A stretch of DNA of 7,397 nt from JAMORN01 sp027063545 [NCBI: bacterium] (lineage in GTDB: Bacteria; JAMORN01). The notes under the pieces were generated by a model. The model saw nothing but the letters and a program-made list of their open reading frames with translations. It had not been told where the DNA came from and searched no databases. Each line of letters opens with the position of its first letter. Position 1 is the first letter of the stretch. A program made the position numbers and the translations under genes. This document shows, one piece after another, positions 3 through 7,397 of this stretch. The stretch is taken from positions 1 to 7,397 of the forward strand of contig JAMORN010000133.1 in assembly GCA_027063545.1 (NCBI GenBank), written 5' to 3'.

Positions 3-797
3 AACACCTTTTCTATTATAGATAATGAGTCTAATAATACCTATAATAATTTTACAATAGTTTATATGTACCCTGTAAGCTTTATAAAACAACTATATTA
101 TTTATTACTAAGAGAATTTAAAATTACTTTCAGAAATAAGGGGATTTTAATTTTTTGGATGCTACAGGGTATTATTATGTCTGTATTAATTGGGATTTTA
201 TATTATAATGTGGACGAATACTTTACTTTTTCTTTAGTTGTAACAATTGCATTATTTTGGATAGGGGCTAATAATGCTTTAAGAAGTATTGTAAAAGAAA
301 ACAATTTATATATAAGAGAACGGCATATAAATCTTAGTTTATTATCTTATTTATTTTCTAAAACCATTGTTTATACTATTTATACTATAATTGAAATATT
401 GATCTTTATGGTAATACTCTTTTTATTTATCGAGTTGTCTCATATAAGTACACTAATTTTATATTCCATTTTAATAGGAACTACAGGAGTATTTTTAGGA
501 CTTTTAATATCTTCTATTTTTAAAAAAGAAGAGAATACACTTATTGCATTACCTTTAGTCCTTATTCCTCAAATAATATTTTCAGGAGGGTTAATAGAGA
601 CAGATAAAATGAATGAAATATCCCAGATTATTTCTAAAATTATACCTTTAAACTATTTTTTTTATTACTTTAAAGAGTTATTAATATGGGATAATGCAAA
701 TATAAAAGGTTTTATTTATATAAATTTAGTATTCATAGTTATATTTTTTATATTTATGATATTAAGCCAATGGAGAAAGGATAAATGGAGTATTTAA
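3..797 (+). CDS. ABCG-like ABC transporter, membrane (permease) part; 5' end outside window
   Basis: This is the integral-membrane part of an ABC-2/ABCG-type exporter. Counting from the ATG at 66 (243 residues), hydrophobic segments lie near 27-47, 54-72, 100-122, 127-150, 157-177 and 216-235, giving about six membrane spans. Two stretches fit bacterial ABCG-like proteins: a charged 'KENNLYIRERHINL' segment (77-90) after the second span, and 'PQIIFSGGLI' (168-177) in the fifth. The ATG at 66 has no Shine-Dalgarno sequence. The frame is open from base 3 and encodes an Asn-rich stretch before that Met, which looks like an interdomain linker. In the known family an ATPase domain, often with FHA domains, is fused upstream of this membrane domain. 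I therefore infer that this is the C-terminal part of such a fusion, although a separate permease starting at 66 is possible. It overlaps the kinase gene by 13 bases. The substrate is unknown. Confidence 0.8.
   Translation, partial: NTFSIIDNESNNTYNNFTIVYMYPVSFIKQLYYLLLREFKITFRNKGILIFWMLQGIIMSVLIGILYYNVDEYFTFSLVVTIALFWIGANNALRSIVKENNLYIRERHINLSLLSYLFSKTIVYTIYTIIEILIFMVILFLFIELSHISTLILYSILIGTTGVFLGLLISSIFKKEENTLIALPLVLIPQIIFSGGLIETDKMNEISQIISKIIPLNYFFYYFKELLIWDNANIKGFIYINLVFIVIFFIFMILSQWRKDKWSI
772..780 (+). promoter_or_regulatory. Ribosome binding site of the kinase gene
   Basis: The purine run GGAGAAAGG ends four bases before the ATG at 785. It lies inside the 3' end of the upstream transporter gene, so it fixes the kinase start and suggests that the two genes are translated from one message. 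Confidence 0.75.
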
Positions 798-2236
798 ATA
801 AATTATCTCCAGAGTTTAAAAAATTTTTAGAGTCTAAGTATGAGATAATTGAAGAAGTCGGCTCTGGAGGGATGGGTTTTGTTATTAAAGTAAGAAATAA
901 AAAGCTAGATAGATTAGAAGCAATTAAAATTCTTTATCCAACTGTTTTATTAAATGAACATTTAACTCGTTTTGAACAAGAAGCTTATATAATAGCTCAG
1001 CTTGACCATCCTAATATTGTTACAATATATTCTTATGATAATTTTGATGAATTAAGATATATTGTAATGCAATACTTACCAGGTGGAAGTTTAGATAATT
1101 TATTAAAAGAGAAAGGAAGATTATCTGAAGAAGAAGCAATAAAAATTACAATAGATATACTTTCAGGTTTAGATTATGCCCATTCAAAAAATATAATACA
1201 TAGGGATATAAAACCCTCAAATATTCTTTTTGATTCTTTAAATAGAGCAGTTATTACAGATTTTGGTATAGCAAAGATAATAAATGATGATTCTAGATTA
1301 ACTAAAACAGGAGAGTTTGTCGGAACTCCAGAGTTTGTTTCGCCAGAACAGGCTCAAGGAGAGAAAGGGGATCAACAAAGTGATTTATATTCTGTAGGAA
1401 TTTTGTTGTATTATATGGTGACTGGTAGATTACCATTTTATGGTGATAATCCAATGAGTATATTACATAAACATATATATGAAGAACCTAAACCTCCTTC
1501 AGAGATTGTACCTGTTAGTATAGAACTTGAGAATATTATATTTAAGGCTTTAGAGAAGGATAAAAAAAATAGATATTTATCAGCCCAAGAATTTATAAAT
1601 GATTTACGTATGATTGAAAATATGACTAAAGTATCAAACACTATTACTTCAAATGCTATATATATATCAGATTATAAAGAAAAATCATACTGGAATCGTG
1701 TTTTTTTTCTTTTATTTATTTTTTTTATTGTTCTTTTGATTTTTTTTGGATATAAATATTATGTGAATAGCTATAAAGGAGAGCATAAAATAAAAGAGGT
1801 AATTATAACAGCTTCAAGTTATGATATTGAAAAAAATGGAGTTTCATATTCTCCTAGTAATGTATATGATGGCAAAAGAGAAACTGCATGGGCAGAGGGA
1901 GTTGAAGGAGATGGAATTGGCGAATATTTAATTTTTAAGTTTAAATACCCTGTATATGTGACAAAAATAGGAGTAATTCCAGGATATGATAAAAAAATGG
2001 ATGATAAGTTTGGAGATAGATGGTATAAGAATCCAAGAATAAAAAAAGCAAAGTTAGTTTTTTCAGATGGATCATTTATGATATTAAATTTAAGAGATTC
2101 AAGGGAAATGCAGTATTTTAAAATTAATAAAACGACCAAGTATATTAAATTTATAATATTAGATGTTTATAAATCACAAAAATGGCATGATACATCTATT
2201 TCAGAAATTGAGATATGGGGGATAAAAGCGCAATGA
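785..2236 (+). CDS. Transmembrane Ser/Thr protein kinase with extracellular discoidin-like/NADase-type glycan-binding domain
   Basis: This is a Hanks-type (PknB-like) kinase of 483 residues with a complete catalytic set. It has the glycine loop GSGGMG (26-31), the ATP lysine in AIK (K48), the C-helix Glu (E66), HRDIKPSN (139-146), DFG (159-161), the GTPEFVSPE activation/P+1 segment (180-188) and the F-helix Asp (D200). The kinase domain ends near 276. One hydrophobic span (about 303-323) anchors it with the kinase in the cytoplasm. Residues about 339-481 resemble the discoidin/F5-8C-like 'NADase-type glycan-binding' domain: an 'ITASS' start, 'YSPSNVYDGKRETAW', 'EGDGIGEYLIFKF', and an ending of 'DTSISEIEIWG'. 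PASTA repeats, common in Gram-positive PknB, are absent. I infer that it senses an extracellular glycan or other ligand and phosphorylates cytoplasmic partners. The adjacent ABC transporter is a plausible target, especially if that protein carries FHA domains. The kinase call is firm; the ligand and substrates are unknown. Confidence 0.93.
   Translation: MEYLNKLSPEFKKFLESKYEIIEEVGSGGMGFVIKVRNKKLDRLEAIKILYPTVLLNEHLTRFEQEAYIIAQLDHPNIVTIYSYDNFDELRYIVMQYLPGGSLDNLLKEKGRLSEEEAIKITIDILSGLDYAHSKNIIHRDIKPSNILFDSLNRAVITDFGIAKIINDDSRLTKTGEFVGTPEFVSPEQAQGEKGDQQSDLYSVGILLYYMVTGRLPFYGDNPMSILHKHIYEEPKPPSEIVPVSIELENIIFKALEKDKKNRYLSAQEFINDLRMIENMTKVSNTITSNAIYISDYKEKSYWNRVFFLLFIFFIVLLIFFGYKYYVNSYKGEHKIKEVIITASSYDIEKNGVSYSPSNVYDGKRETAWAEGVEGDGIGEYLIFKFKYPVYVTKIGVIPGYDKKMDDKFGDRWYKNPRIKKAKLVFSDGSFMILNLRDSREMQYFKINKTTKYIKFIILDVYKSQKWHDTSISEIEIWGIKAQ
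2217..2221 (+). promoter_or_regulatory. Probable ribosome binding site for the HAD phosphatase gene
   Basis: A GGGGG run inside the 3' end of the kinase gene lies 11 bases before the ATG at 2233. This supports 2233 over the in-frame ATG at 2215, which has only a weak purine stretch upstream. The spacing is somewhat long, so reinitiation at the ATGA overlap may matter as much. Confidence 0.45.
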
Positions 2237-3295: not shown

Positions 3296-4261
3296 ATGAT
3301 AGATCCAATATCAGAATTCCATGAAGGAAAGGTAATTTCAAAACAATTTCAGCTTGTATCTATAGATGAGAGAATTGCTTCAACAGGTAGTAAGTACTAT
3401 ATTTTTCATTTAAAAGATGATACTGGAAAAATCTCAGGTTTTTATTTTCAATCTATAGATAAAGAGGTTTTTGAAAAATTAAAAAATGTAAATATTGTAT
3501 TTATTGAGGGTATTGTTGAAAAAGATAAGAATTCGGAATTAGTAATAAAGATTACCCATTTTAAAGGGATAGATAAAAAAGAAGATATAAGGAAAGAAGA
3601 TATTTTTAAAAGAGAAGATAATATTGAAGTTTATTGGAAAGAATTGGAAAAGTTAATAGATTTAGTTGATGATGGAGAAATAAAAAAGCTTTTAACAATA
3701 ATTTTTTCCCATGAAAAAATTAGAGAGCGATATAGTGAATATCCTGCTGCGAAAAGTGTTCATCATATTAAATTAGGGGGACTTTTAAGACACACAATAG
3801 AGGTTGCTAAAATTGCCTATAATATCTATAAAGTTTTTCCTGACAAATTAGATAAAAGTTTATTAATTGCAGGAGCTTTACTTCATGATTTGGGAAAAAT
3901 AGAGGAATATGAGGTTTATTATGATAGAGAAATTACCGATAGAGGACGTTTTTTAGGTCATATAATAATGGGTGTTATGAGGGTAAGGGATGTTATAAAA
4001 AAAATAGGCGATTTTTCTCCCAAAAAGGCAGTTTTATTGGAGCATATAATATTAAGTCATCATGGAAGATTAGAGTACAATTCCCCTGTTGTACCTTTAA
4101 TTCCAGAGGCTTTTATTATTCATTATGCTGATGAGATATCGACAAAATTAGATATTTTTGATATCCAAAAGGAAAAAAATAATAAGGAAGAAAATTGGTC
4201 AAATTATGTAAGAAGTATAGAAAGAAAGTTATATATAGGTGACTATAATGATTTAAAATAA
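3296..4261 (+). CDS. yhaM: YhaM-type 3'-5' exoribonuclease (OB fold plus HD domain)
   Basis: This 321-residue protein has the domain order and length of the YhaM/Cbf1 family of metal-dependent 3'-5' exonucleases. An N-terminal OB-fold nucleic-acid-binding domain spans about 10-92 ('YYIFHLKDDTGKISGFYF'). A linker follows, and then an HD phosphohydrolase domain from about 150. The metal ligands are visible: H166 in GGLLRHT, H197-D198 in LLHDLGK, H222 in GHI, H255-H256 in LSHHG, and D279 in YADEIS. The 'SPVVPLIPEAFIIHYAD' segment (263-279) is strongly typical of YhaM. The enzyme is expected to trim the 3' ends of RNA, and possibly single-stranded DNA, in the cytoplasm. The start at 3296 has a short AGGT (3286-3289) six bases upstream and lies 18 bases after yraN. 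A general HD nucleotide hydrolase is less likely because of the OB domain. Confidence 0.88.
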   Translation: MIDPISEFHEGKVISKQFQLVSIDERIASTGSKYYIFHLKDDTGKISGFYFQSIDKEVFEKLKNVNIVFIEGIVEKDKNSELVIKITHFKGIDKKEDIRKEDIFKREDNIEVYWKELEKLIDLVDDGEIKKLLTIIFSHEKIRERYSEYPAAKSVHHIKLGGLLRHTIEVAKIAYNIYKVFPDKLDKSLLIAGALLHDLGKIEEYEVYYDREITDRGRFLGHIIMGVMRVRDVIKKIGDFSPKKAVLLEHIILSHHGRLEYNSPVVPLIPEAFIIHYADEISTKLDIFDIQKEKNNKEENWSNYVRSIERKLYIGDYNDLK

Positions 4262-4282
4262 ATTGGAGAATTGTATAAAAAA

Positions 4283-4288
4283 GAGAGG
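4283..4288 (+). promoter_or_regulatory. Ribosome binding site of rex
   Basis: GAGAGG lies seven bases before the ATG at 4296 in the 34-base gap after the exoribonuclease gene, the largest gap in the window. This fixes the Rex start. I see no clear promoter or Rex-type inverted repeat in the gap. Confidence 0.7.
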
Positions 4289-4295
4289 TTAATAA

Positions 4296-4955
4296 ATGGA
4301 TAATAAAGAAAATTTTAAAGCAAATATAGTTTCAAAAAAGATTGTAGAAAGATTAACTATATATAAAAGAGAAATTGAAAAATTAATAAAAGAAGGTAAA
4401 GAGACAATATTCTCTTACGAATTAGAAAAAATAACAGGTATACCTGCTACAACAATAAGAAAGGATTTTTCAATACTTGGAGTAAAATTAGGACATGTAA
4501 AATATGGATATAATTTAATCTATTTAAAAAGAGTATTTGATGAAATTTTAGGAGTAAAAAAGCCGTGGAATATAGCAATTGTTGGTATAGGGAATTTAGG
4601 AAGGGCTTTAATGGGTTATACTGGATTTGAAAAAAGAAATTTTAATGTTATTTGTGGATTTGATATAGATGAAAAGGTGGTTGGTACTAAATATAATAAT
4701 AAACCAATCTTTCATCTTAATGAAGCCCCTCAAATTTTAAAAGAGTATGATATACATATAATAGTTTTAACTGTACCATCAGAGGTTACTGAAAGTGTTT
4801 TTAAGTATTTTTATGATTTAGGTATTAGAGCCTTTTTAAATTTAACACCTGTTATAATAAATTGCTCTTCATGTGTTTATGTGGAGAATGTAGATTTAAC
4901 TTCTCCTTTAGAGAAGTTAACATATTATGTTGATAAAAATATTTGTAATTCATAG
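4296..4955 (+). CDS. rex: Redox-sensing transcriptional repressor Rex
   Basis: Rex is a homodimeric repressor that leaves its operators when the NADH/NAD+ ratio rises, controlling fermentation and respiration genes. The 219-residue length is normal. The N-terminal winged helix-turn-helix spans about 15-80, with recognition helix 'TTIRKDFSILG' and wing 'GHVKYGYN'. The C-terminal Rossmann domain follows, with the dinucleotide loop GIGNLGRAL (97-105), the 'GFDIDEKVVG' strand end whose acidic residues (D123, D125) fit NAD(H) rather than NADP(H), 'VLTVPSE' (157-163) and the late 'VENVDLTSPLEKL' element (196-208). One oddity is a Cys-Ser-Ser-Cys pair (C190, C193), in a loop that usually lacks cysteine. 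The gene sits upstream of the STAS-like and ATPase-domain genes. Co-transcription is likely from the 24-base gap, but a functional link is unproven. Confidence 0.95.
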   Translation: MDNKENFKANIVSKKIVERLTIYKREIEKLIKEGKETIFSYELEKITGIPATTIRKDFSILGVKLGHVKYGYNLIYLKRVFDEILGVKKPWNIAIVGIGNLGRALMGYTGFEKRNFNVICGFDIDEKVVGTKYNNKPIFHLNEAPQILKEYDIHIIVLTVPSEVTESVFKYFYDLGIRAFLNLTPVIINCSSCVYVENVDLTSPLEKLTYYVDKNICNS

Positions 4956-4967
4956 CAAATTATATAA

Positions 4968-4973
4968 AAGGAG
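4968..4973 (+). promoter_or_regulatory. Ribosome binding site deciding the GTG start at 4980
   Basis: AAGGAG, the best Shine-Dalgarno sequence in the window, ends six bases before a GTG codon. Its position decides in favour of the GTG start; there is no in-frame ATG nearby. Confidence 0.8.
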
Positions 4974-4979
4974 AAAATA

Positions 4980-5330
4980 GTGCTTGATTTTGTAGAGTTT
5001 GAAATAGAAGAAGGAAGGTTTTATATAAAAACTCTAAGTTTAGAAAAGTTATCTACCAGTGAAGTTGACTTATTTACAGAATCTATCATTGTATATTGGA
5101 AAAAAAATGAGGATAAATATACTCATATTGTAGAAAAGTTCCCTATAATTTCGATAAAAGATTTGAAAAATCTTACATTATTTGGAGTATTATTTTTGAG
5201 ATTTGTTCTATACAAATTAAAAGAAAGTAAAATAAGTGTTCAAATCGAAATAGAAGATAAAAGTTGTTATAGTAAATTAGAAAATTTAATATTGGACCCT
5301 TATTATGATAATGTTATTATTAATGATTAA
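4980..5330 (+). CDS. Small STAS-like (anti-anti-sigma-like) protein, divergent
   Basis: This is a 116-residue soluble protein with no signal peptide or membrane span. I do not recognise it by direct similarity. Its size and its order of strand and helix elements fit a STAS fold of the SpoIIAA/RsbV type. There is an N-terminal strand pair, then a hydrophobic strand and 'IISIKDLKNLTLFGVLFLRFVLYKLKES' (56-83), which falls where family members have the 'DLS...DSSG' turn and following helix; after it come 'ISVQIEI' (85-91) and a C-terminal helix and strand. At the phosphoacceptor turn the usual Asp-Ser is replaced by Thr-Leu (T66, L67), leaving only G69, so regulation by Ser phosphorylation looks unlikely. 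The next gene encodes an RsbW-like ATPase domain, the normal partner of such proteins, which supports the call. The start is GTG with a strong AAGGAG. The assignment is inferred from pattern and context. Confidence 0.5.
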   Translation: MLDFVEFEIEEGRFYIKTLSLEKLSTSEVDLFTESIIVYWKKNEDKYTHIVEKFPIISIKDLKNLTLFGVLFLRFVLYKLKESKISVQIEIEDKSCYSKLENLILDPYYDNVIIND

Positions 5331-5363
5331 TGAAGTAAAATTTAAAATTAATGTAGACGTATT

Positions 5364-6785
5364 ATGAAGGAAATTGTTTTTCTGTTTTTTCTAAAGGATA
5401 AAAGTTTAGAAGCAATATTAAGAAAATTTGGTGTAAATATTATCTCTGTTTTAAATAGTAAATTTAAACTTAATTTTTTATATAGTTTAGATGAGTTTTT
5501 TAATCTAGAAATCACAGGTGATGAGTTTTTCTTTTTAATAGAAGATGAATTTTTTGAAGAGAATAGACATTTTTTTTATCATTATAAAAAAATTTTTAAC
5601 TATTGTTTTATTGTATTTCTTTCCTATTTTAGATATCAAGAATATAAAGATTTAGGCATATTCAATTATTTAATAATAAAAGATACAGAGTCAATATTAC
5701 TCCAGCAGTTATATACTGTATATAGATTGGAACAGGCAAGAATGAAGATTACATCTTTAAATATAGAATACAAAGAATTTTTTAATAATAGTTTAGAGGC
5801 TTATAAAAGAGCAATTAAATATGAATTAAGTAATATCCCTAATTATTTACATGTGGATTTTCATATAATTCATGGTAAAAATTTTCCCAACTGGCTATTT
5901 CATATAAAAGAAGATAAAAAAGAAAAAAGAACTCTTATCGTTTATATAGAAAAATTAGGAGATATGACAGTTGATAGTATAAGGGAATTATTTTTTATAT
6001 ATGGACGAGTAAGAGAAAGAGGTATAGATAAAGTAAAAGAGTTTGTTCAAGGTATATCAAAAGATGAAGAATTTGGATTTATTTTAATTGAGGTGAATAA
6101 TTTATTGAAATATAATATATCATACTACAATATATCTAAAGATAGAGTGTTTAGATATAATGATACTAAAGGGAACTATAAATATTTCCTTATAGATAAT
6201 TTTATTGGTAATAATTTTCAAATGTTAAAGTATAGAAAGAAGATTTTTTTAGAAAAGAACATAGAAAAGGTTATTTTTAGTAAGACAGAAAGGGTTATAA
6301 ATAATGATACTCTTTTCTCATTAGTTATTAAAATAACAAAAAAAGAAAAGGTATTCCATTCTACTATTAATTATAATGTGTATAATAGATTTTATTTATC
6401 AAAATTATACAGAATTATAGAAGTAAAAGATATAGAGGAAGTTATGAAAGATTTAGATAATATTGATATAAAGAATAAATTTTCCCAAAAAAAATATAAT
6501 AATTTAAAAATAGTACTTATGGAAGTTTTGAAAAATAGTATTTATCATGGTTTTGAATTTAATCCTAATTTAATGGTTTATTTATTATTATTAATAAGAA
6601 AAAATAAAGTAATTTTTATACTCGAAGATATTTCATTGAGAAAATTTAAATTTGCAAAAAAGAAAAAAGAGTTATTCTCCCTTGGCGGTAGAGGACTTTT
6701 TTTAATAGAAAAATTAAGTGATAAAATAGATGAATATAAAAATGTATATTTAAAGATAGAGTTTAATTTTGATAAAAAAAAATAG
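5364..6785 (+). CDS. Degenerate receiver / SpoIIE-type PP2C / RsbW-like ATPase-domain regulator
   Basis: This 473-residue protein reads as three fused signalling domains, each eroded. Residues 1-125 look like a response-regulator receiver: 'CFIVFLSYF' (81-89), then 'KDLGIFNYLIIKD' (95-107), match its fourth strand and its Ala/Gly-x-x-tyr-leu-x-Lys end, but the acidic pocket and phosphorylatable Asp are not convincing. Residues about 140-328 follow a SpoIIE PP2C layout, ending in 'NNDTLFSLVIKI' like the usual 'DDxTLxVxxx'. D278 and D315 may remain, but the GGDxYD-type motif is missing (around 175-181) and the second metal Asp appears to be Glu (E196). Residues about 376-468 are a GHKL/RsbW-like ATPase domain, with N box 'EVLKNSIYHG' (E387, N391) and G2 box 'GGRGLFLIEKLSD'. 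The G1 box keeps D422 but lacks its glycines. I infer a pseudoenzyme or scaffold, or an anti-sigma-like factor acting on the upstream STAS-like protein. There is no Shine-Dalgarno sequence at the ATG; an upstream in-frame stop at 5349 limits extension. Confidence 0.65.
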   Translation: MKEIVFLFFLKDKSLEAILRKFGVNIISVLNSKFKLNFLYSLDEFFNLEITGDEFFFLIEDEFFEENRHFFYHYKKIFNYCFIVFLSYFRYQEYKDLGIFNYLIIKDTESILLQQLYTVYRLEQARMKITSLNIEYKEFFNNSLEAYKRAIKYELSNIPNYLHVDFHIIHGKNFPNWLFHIKEDKKEKRTLIVYIEKLGDMTVDSIRELFFIYGRVRERGIDKVKEFVQGISKDEEFGFILIEVNNLLKYNISYYNISKDRVFRYNDTKGNYKYFLIDNFIGNNFQMLKYRKKIFLEKNIEKVIFSKTERVINNDTLFSLVIKITKKEKVFHSTINYNVYNRFYLSKLYRIIEVKDIEEVMKDLDNIDIKNKFSQKKYNNLKIVLMEVLKNSIYHGFEFNPNLMVYLLLLIRKNKVIFILEDISLRKFKFAKKKKELFSLGGRGLFLIEKLSDKIDEYKNVYLKIEFNFDKKK

Positions 6786-6787
6786 AT

Positions 6788-6793
6788 AAGGAG
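6788..6793 (+). promoter_or_regulatory. Ribosome binding site of secA
   Basis: AAGGAG lies eight bases before the ATG at 6802, only three bases after the preceding stop codon. It supports 6802 over the in-frame ATG at 6808. Confidence 0.7.
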
Positions 6794-6801
6794 AGAAGAA
6801 A

Positions 6802-7397
6802 ATGTTAATGAAGATTTTGAGAAAAATTTTTGGATCAAGAAATGAGAGAATAATAAAAAAATTGAGAAAAGATGTAGAAGTAATAAATTCTCTGGAAGAG
6901 GAAATATCAAAATTAACTGATAAACAATTAAGGGATAAAACTAATGAATTTAGAAGAAGATTGGCAAAAGGAGAGAAGTTAGATGATATAATGCATGAAG
7001 CTTTTGCAGTGGTTAGAGAAGCTGCTAAAAGAACCTTAGGGATGCGTCATTTTGATGTCCAAGTAATTGGGGCTATTGTTCTTCATCAAGGTAAAATTGC
7101 TGAAATGAAGACAGGAGAGGGAAAAACTTTAGTTGCTACAATGCCTGCTTATTTAAATGCATTAGCTTTGAGTGATAAATGGGTAGAAAGAGCAAGAAAA
7201 GAGTTTGGGAAGGATCCAGAAAATTGGATATTTGAACCTTTTGATGATAGAACACCTGTTGGGAAAGGAGTACATGTAGTAACAGTAAATGATTATCTAG
7301 CAAAAAGAGATGCCGAGTGGATGGGACCTGTTTATGAGTTTCTTGGTTTAAAGGTGAGTTATATTTTAACTACATCTTCGCATAAGGAGAGAGTAGA
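6802..7397 (+). CDS. secA: Preprotein translocase ATPase SecA, N-terminal part (cut by window end)
   Basis: SecA is the cytoplasmic motor that drives unfolded preproteins through the SecYEG channel using ATP. The first 198 residues are present, with no stop before the window ends. The N-terminal helix is followed by the nucleotide-binding-domain-1 landmarks: '[26 protein letters not shown]' (77-102), Walker A 'MKTGEGKT' (102-109), 'PAYLNAL' (115-121) and '[23 protein letters not shown]' (156-178). Between 'YLNAL' and 'GKGVHVVT' most SecA proteins have only about two residues, whereas here there is an extra charged, Trp-containing segment of about 32 residues (122-153). It is in frame and flanked by perfectly conserved sequence, so it is a real insert rather than a sequencing error. 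The gene starts 16 bases after the previous one and may share its transcript. Confidence 0.97.

What the first reader, a model, noticed from the sequence alone, without database searches (positions are those of the whole stretch)
5364..6785. Three-domain SpoIIE/RsbW-like regulator in which every catalytic site looks eroded
The protein follows the known fused receiver-PP2C phosphatase-ATPase layout, yet the receiver lacks a clear acidic pocket, the PP2C domain has lost most metal ligands, and the ATPase domain has a good N box and GGRGLFLI motif but no G1 glycines. All three domains keep their secondary-structure pattern in a 473-codon uninterrupted frame, so it is under selection and not a pseudogene. 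It may be a pseudoenzyme scaffold version of the partner-switching system, which would be unusual. The domain matching was done by eye and is an inference.
Basis: partly seen in the sequence, partly recalled or inferred. Interest (0 to 1): 0.62.

Follow-up and report, generated by a model that had tools for sequence, protein, structure and literature searches.

The report
RsbW-like protein with altered ATP site
A bacterial gene encodes a regulator whose last quarter is clearly an RsbW-type ATPase domain missing two usual ATP-site glycines, while the claimed receiver and phosphatase parts could not be shown to exist, so the 'three eroded enzymes' picture stays a guess.

Summary
The 473-codon gene at 5364-6785 is real. 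Its C-terminal quarter (aa ~358-458) is an RsbW/SpoIIAB-type HATPase domain, shown by Pfam and by a strong custom-profile hit. That domain is only partly eroded. The N-box Glu387 and Asn391, the G1 aspartate Asp422 and the GGRG box are kept. Both G1 glycines are gone. The same loss occurs in 3 of 4 such domains of this genome, against 2 of 55 elsewhere in my (non-random) set.

The receiver (aa 1-125) and PP2C (aa 126-345) assignments are not supported by sequence. Pfam lists nothing. The receiver score is matched by 2-8% of windows from other proteins of the same genome, and the PP2C score by 32-41%. The AlphaFold model is unusable (pLDDT 33). An eroded receiver-PP2C origin is therefore neither shown nor excluded. 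The upstream 116-aa ORF has a weak STAS-like model, suggestive of a partner protein.

Best reading: a divergent partner-switching regulator that acts mainly by binding partners, with an unidentified 345-residue N-terminal region. The fused layout (HsbR, CrsR) and kinase-negative RsbW homologues (M. smegmatis RsbW1, RsbW3) are already known. Interest is modest.

The parts
5364..6785 (+). Q: 473-aa protein, intact frame
5364..5738 (+). aa 1-125: N-terminal part, at best weakly receiver-like; no family match
   Evidence: no Pfam hit; REC score matched by 24 and 94 of 1152 G000 windows in two versions
5739..6398 (+). aa 126-345: middle part of unknown fold; PP2C relation not shown
   Evidence: no Pfam hit; PP2C score matched by 156 and 198 of 482 G000 windows
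6435..6737 (+). aa 358-458: HATPase_c_2 (RsbW/SpoIIAB-type) domain
6519..6551 (+). N box MEVLKNSIYHG (Glu387, Asn391, His395, Gly396 kept)
6624..6638 (+). G1 position EDISL: Asp422 kept, both glycines of DxGxG lost
6684..6707 (+). G2 box GGRGLFLI, kept
4980..5330 (+). P7: 116-aa ORF (GTG start), 33 bases upstream of Q; possibly STAS-like partner
   Evidence: no relevant Pfam hit; low-confidence model (pLDDT 54.5) whose VIA-align list holds 11 STAS entries of 50 (my count from titles and ranges), best Z 6.1; STAS profile no better than chance

Best explanation
Q is a divergent regulator of the RsbW/SpoIIAB (HATPase_c_2) type. Its C-terminal GHKL domain binds a partner, probably the STAS-like protein of the neighbouring gene and/or a sigma or anti-sigma factor. 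Its 345-residue N-terminal region, of unproven fold, gates that binding. Because both G1 glycines are replaced, nucleotide binding and Ser/Thr kinase turnover are probably weak or absent, so the switch would work mainly by regulated protein binding. Shown: the gene, the HATPase domain, and the motif state. Inferred: partner, gating, weak ATP use.
For: The HATPase domain is unambiguous: 56.1 bits, and 0 of 1183 windows from other proteins of the genome reach its profile score. No glycine lies between Asp422 and Gly441, while Glu387, Asn391, Asp422 and GRG are kept. The same genome has other partner-switching parts: SpoIIE phosphatases on C224 and C88 and one cut by a contig end on C155, three further HATPase_c_2 matches, one of them under the cut-off, a STAS protein, and three Sigma70_r4 matches. 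P7 lies 33 bases upstream on the same strand, with a STAS-leaning low-confidence model. RsbW homologues that did not phosphorylate RsfB, and act by binding, are known: M. smegmatis RsbW1 and RsbW3 (PMC7693655, passages read).
Against: Glu387 and Asn391, the catalytic-base and Mg positions in SpoIIAB (recalled), are conserved, which argues that ATP chemistry may persist. P7 shows no STAS signal by profile (963 of 1357 windows as good), its Foldseek list is led by non-STAS entries, and BCH domains tie with STAS near the top of its VIA list (Z 5.3 and 5.2). No interaction data exist. No orthologue was found, so conservation of the gene pair or of any motif is untested.
Confidence: 0.5

Rival explanations
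1. One reading: Q descends from a receiver-PP2C-HATPase fusion (HsbR/CrsR layout) in which all three sites have decayed, leaving a pseudoenzyme scaffold. (This concerns origin and is compatible with the binding-switch reading.)
For: The order REC > linker helix > PP2C > HATPase is a known layout (L046; HsbR/CrsR). The best glocal alignments are colinear with it, e.g. FGFILIEVNNLLKYNISYYNI against FVTlFYgviDlrtgeltYsnAGH. The REC score is high against own shuffles (2 and 5 of 300 as good), and the joint receiver+PP2C score too (5 of 300; 12 of 182 windows). The poor model still shows a helix 134-156 followed by beta-beta-beta-alpha-alpha-beta-beta, the order I expect for the N-terminal half of a SpoIIE-type PP2C (my reading).
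Against: The PP2C score is no better than chance (156 and 198 of 482 windows; 88 and 125 of 300 shuffles), and the receiver score is matched by 2-8% of windows. There is no Pfam match. If homologous, aa 304-325 would have to join the TDG motif directly to the last PP2C strand, deleting about 45 residues (eye alignment).
Confidence: 0.3
2. The N-terminal 345 residues are an unrelated or new sensor region fused to an RsbW-type domain; no receiver or PP2C was ever there.
For: No family match for aa 1-345. HATPase_c_2 domains also occur in other fusions, e.g. inside a receiver/sigma-54-activator-like protein (L041).
Against: Lack of signal in a very AT-rich protein without known homologues is weak evidence of a new fold. 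The receiver score is mildly elevated.
Confidence: 0.35
3. The HATPase domain is a working kinase with a non-canonical nucleotide pocket.
For: Glu387, Asn391, Asp422 and GRG are kept. Loss of the G1 glycines recurs in 3 of 4 HATPase_c_2 domains of the genome, which would fit a tolerated variant rather than decay.
Against: Loss of both G1 glycines is rare elsewhere in my set (2 of 55; 1 of 42 after thinning at 70% identity), and the loop after Asp422 is lysine-rich (sequence).
Confidence: 0.25
4. Decaying gene under AT drift with no retained function.
For: GC is 20.5% and the F/I/L/K/N/Y share is 60%, near the upper end of the window's genes.
Against: Intact 473-codon frame; codon usage favours the frame; the N box and GRG box are intact. 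YraN in the same window is even more AT-rich (18.5% GC) and is a recognised family.
Confidence: 0.07

Closest known systems
HsbR (P. aeruginosa) / CrsR (S. oneidensis), receiver-PP2C-kinase/anti-sigma proteins (PMC6482189, passages read)
   Same: C-terminal GHKL anti-sigma/kinase-type domain; a STAS-like partner is plausible
   Different: Receiver and PP2C not detectable in Q; G1 glycines lost
RsbW / SpoIIAB anti-sigma factor kinases (Pfam HATPase_c_2)
   Same: N box Glu/Asn/His-Gly, G1 aspartate, G2 GRG box
   Different: No G1 glycines; 345-residue N-terminal extension
M. smegmatis RsbW1/RsbW3 (PMC7693655, passages read)
   Same: RsbW-type proteins that did not phosphorylate RsfB and act by binding
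   Different: Much smaller (RsbW3 is 194 aa); their G1 boxes were not compared here
G356 protein L046:5285-6868 (receiver-SpoIIE-HATPase, 528 aa)
   Same: HATPase region of its family profile aligns with Q (93 columns, 27% identity)
   Different: All three domains match Pfam
Same-genome HATPase proteins on C224 (270 aa) and C155 (501 aa)
   Same: HATPase_c_2-type domain without glycines at the two G1 columns (C155 has one glycine three residues after the Asp)
   Different: Other N-terminal parts; C155 scores under the Pfam cut-off

Membership tests
HATPase_c_2 (RsbW/SpoIIAB type) | Profile score over the curated cut-off | tested here: met
   28.3 and 32.4 bits against 27.4; 56.1 bits with own profile
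HATPase_c_2 (RsbW/SpoIIAB type) | N box Glu...Asn | tested here: met
   Glu387, Asn391
HATPase_c_2 (RsbW/SpoIIAB type) | G1 box DxGxG | tested here: not met
   Asp422 kept, no glycine before Gly441
Active anti-sigma kinase (RsbW) | Phosphorylates a STAS antagonist | not testable with these tools
   Needs protein
Receiver domain (Response_reg) | Family profile match | tested here: not met
   aa 1-130 not listed by Pfam, nor in the own-genome PF00072 search at E up to 1
Receiver domain (Response_reg) | Receiver fold | tested here: inconclusive
   Model pLDDT 33; score matched by 2-8% of windows
PP2C SpoIIE phosphatase | Family profile match | tested here: not met
   aa 126-345 not listed by Pfam; Q not among the own-genome PF07228 matches at E 0.001
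PP2C SpoIIE phosphatase | Metal ligands (SpoIIE Asp628, Asp746, Asp795; Asp610 a would-be second-metal ligand; PMC3517971, passages read) | tested here: inconclusive
   No alignment above chance, so columns cannot be assigned
PP2C SpoIIE phosphatase | PP2C fold | tested here: inconclusive
   Model unusable
STAS domain (neighbour P7) | Family profile match | tested here: not met
STAS domain (neighbour P7) | STAS fold | tested here: inconclusive
   pLDDT 54.5; 11 of 50 VIA entries are STAS (my count), best Z 6.1, rmsd 2.4, 61 aligned; BCH rows at Z 5.3 and 5.2

The most novel reading that the evidence does not exclude
In this deep, nearly unsampled lineage, partner switching has become largely phosphorylation-independent. 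Most RsbW-type domains found (3 of 4) have lost the G1 glycines. Q plus the STAS-like P7 form a signalling pair built from a receiver, a phosphatase and a kinase that no longer catalyse anything and act only as binding modules.
Probability: 0.1. Interest if true: 0.6.

Novelty: new variant of a known kind. Interest (0 to 1): 0.25.

Why it matters
If the G1 loss is a real lineage trait, it would be a natural test of how much of partner switching needs ATP turnover and how much is plain competitive binding. For the finding as given, the main value is a correction: one domain is real, and two are not demonstrable from this sequence.

Tried and rejected
Close homologues: none in genome contigs or viral contigs; both scans start from exact short peptides, so they reach only near relatives. 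Across 386 genomes, 30 had a match at E<=0.01, G000 included; 29 of the 31 non-self rows lie in the HATPase region and the other two are short N-terminal pieces. In 42 genomes of the phylum of G102, 7 had matches at E<=0.01; 6 of the 7 rows lie in the HATPase region and the seventh has five stops. In 39 genomes of the phylum of G256, which is also that of G118, 5 had a match at E<=1e-5, all in the HATPase region (the same genomes). No other genome of the window's own phylum is held.

A genome-contig scan with Rex to find relatives gave nothing. SecA was then used: G102 and G118 match it best and share its insertion, but no Q orthologue turned up in their phyla. The SecA-flanking ORFs of G102 and G118 were only read by eye; none looked like Q.

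Solved-structure sequence search: five rows, best E 0.38; three are SpoIIAB at E 0.79-0.88.

Profile tests: the first glocal run was wrong because X residues (masked or gap) were scored as alanine. It was redone with 64 of 255 ORFs dropped (54 contain X; the rest are from C224 and C155 or are known SpoIIE or receiver proteins), leaving 191. The null comes from 83 of 355 contigs plus five window proteins. It holds unverified ORFs, and its windows overlap, so they are not independent. Reversed windows gave the same picture (receiver 16 and 46 of 1152; PP2C 136 and 188 of 482). HH-style local alignment of aa 1-345 gave probability 0.2%; shuffles as good in 7 of 60 (receiver), 5 and 14 of 60 (PP2C, two cuts). 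A segment of the C155 protein that looks receiver-like by eye scored 49.2, the same as Q. The power of these tests for a strongly eroded domain is unknown.

Structure: Q folded as a single sequence, pLDDT 33. The Foldseek and VIA lists for it are noise or match mainly the helical stretch 105-161, and say nothing about the domains. Foldseek for P7 had no hit below E 0.07.

Rfam and tRNA scans of the window: nothing. Promoter-like sites in 4250-6900 at chance level. One paper search for the lineage was of no use.

Considered and rejected: pseudogene; frame artefact.

Full report
What is there. The window is a whole contig (C133) of a 1.57-Mb, 355-contig, 83% complete genome (G000) that is the only one held from its phylum. 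Genes, all on +: an ABC-2 permease part, a Ser/Thr kinase with an NADase-type discoidin domain, a HAD hydrolase, YraN, a YhaM-like HD protein, Rex, an unassigned 116-aa ORF (P7), the 473-aa protein Q of the finding, and the start of SecA (SecA named by me and matched to long frames in 97 other genomes). Q is a real gene: an open frame of this length at its base composition has a chance of about 6e-25, and codon usage supports the frame.

The HATPase domain. Pfam HATPase_c_2 matches aa 358-458 just over its cut-off, and better when the C-terminus is scanned alone. A profile built here from 72 domains gives 56.1 bits at aa 365-456. None of 1183 windows from other proteins of the same genome reaches its glocal score (123.4; highest 94.4). 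Glu387, Asn391, His395, Gly396, Asp422 and GGRG 441-444 are present. The G1 box reads D-I-S-L-R, and there is no glycine until 441.

Is the G1 loss special? Among the 58 domains with the N-box glutamate in my set (Q not counted), 57 keep the aspartate, 53 the first glycine and 34 the second. Both glycines are missing in 3 of 4 domains of this genome (Q, the 270-aa C224 protein and the 501-aa C155 protein, which has one glycine three residues after its Asp) against 2 of 55 elsewhere, 1 of 42 after thinning at 70% identity (Fisher p 0.0012 on the unthinned set). The set was collected by similarity to Q and to L046, contains repeats, columns were assigned by hmmalign, and the C155 domain is under the Pfam cut-off. 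This is a lead and not a result.

The receiver and PP2C claims. The positive control L046 (receiver-SpoIIE-HATPase, 528 aa) is recognised in all three parts by Pfam. Q is recognised in one. Segments aa 1-130, 126-345, 151-327 and 1-345 have no Pfam match (limit E 10, but filters drop most above about 0.1). A glocal profile aligner with windows of 191 other ORFs of the same genome as null gave, for the receiver, scores of 49.0 and 48.7 in two versions, matched by 24 and 94 of 1152 windows and by 2 and 5 of 300 shuffles. For PP2C the scores were 67.0 and 67.7, matched by 156 and 198 of 482 windows and by 88 and 125 of 300 shuffles. Intact controls from the genome scored 164 (receiver) and 256-281 (PP2C). 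Two narrower PP2C versions also gave no support: a core (173 of 764 windows) and aa 141-330 (151 of 629). A joint receiver+PP2C test was matched by 12 of 182 windows and 5 of 300 shuffles. The best alignments are colinear with the claimed layout, which is why the eye finds it convincing, but the null shows that other proteins align about as well. The power of the test for a truly eroded domain is unknown, so the layout is unproven and not disproved. Single-sequence AlphaFold gave pLDDT 33; its predicted strands and helices are at most a hint.

Neighbour and setting. P7 has no profile match to STAS, but its low-confidence model (pLDDT 54.5) lists 11 STAS entries among the 50 shown by VIA-align, best BicA STAS Z 6.1 (my count, some named STAS from residue ranges and recall). 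BCH domains come next at Z 5.3 and 5.2. All Z are under 8, so this is suggestive only. Elsewhere the genome has SpoIIE phosphatases on C224 and C88 and one cut by a contig end on C155, eight receivers over the cut-off, and three Sigma70_r4 matches, one in a 71-aa frame. The parts of a partner-switching network therefore exist in which Q could act.

Mechanism. The most likely role is a binding switch: an RsbW-type domain that holds a STAS-like partner or a sigma/anti-sigma factor, gated by the N-terminal region, with little ATP turnover. RsbW homologues that did not phosphorylate their antagonist and work by binding have been described (RsbW1/RsbW3, PMC7693655, passages), and three-domain receiver-PP2C-kinase regulators too (HsbR/CrsR, PMC6482189, passages). 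I searched the library for degenerate or pseudoenzyme versions; the listed titles and abstract starts show none of this exact form. I read listings there, not full texts, and the library lacks most subscription papers, so this is no proof of absence.

Verdict. Observation partly confirmed, interpretation partly supported. It is a new variant of a known kind at most, of modest interest. The odds given for the rivals are not exclusive: the origin of the N-terminal region and the activity of the HATPase domain are separate questions.

Noticed in passing
window 6802-7397 (SecA start); L087, L088: SecA carries an insertion before the VTVNDYLA motif. Of 98 genomes with a SecA match (the window's own included), only G102 and G118 besides the own genome have a match that runs across it, so it may be a phylogenetic marker for this lineage.
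   Followed up: partly
L041:2158-4947 (-) and L169:352-3075 (+): Two genomes of one phylum encode 908-930-aa proteins with an RsbW-type HATPase between a receiver/sigma-54-activator-like half and a second AAA-like half; an unusual fusion (Pfam for L041 only).
   Followed up: no
L012:1693-3198 (-), contig C155: 501-aa protein that by eye has STAS, a Cys-rich and a receiver-like part, plus a weak HATPase match (18.5 bits, below cut-off), next to a SpoIIE gene cut by the contig end.
   Followed up: partly
L011:1121-1933 (-), contig C224: 270-aa protein with a HATPase_c_2 domain that keeps Glu/Asn and GRG but lacks the G1 Asp and glycines, in a gene row with an intact SpoIIE, a second HATPase and a STAS protein.
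   Followed up: partly
window 785-2236: PknB-like Ser/Thr kinase with a C-terminal NADase-type discoidin/glycan-binding domain.
   Followed up: no
window 4896-4920: Terminator-like hairpin inside the 3' end of rex, 60 bases before P7 (2 terminator-like sites found in 4250-6900 against 0.1 expected).
   Followed up: no
L101:2516-4069 (+): Receiver-PglZ fusion in the same genome, the PorX-like layout (PorX name recalled).
   Followed up: no
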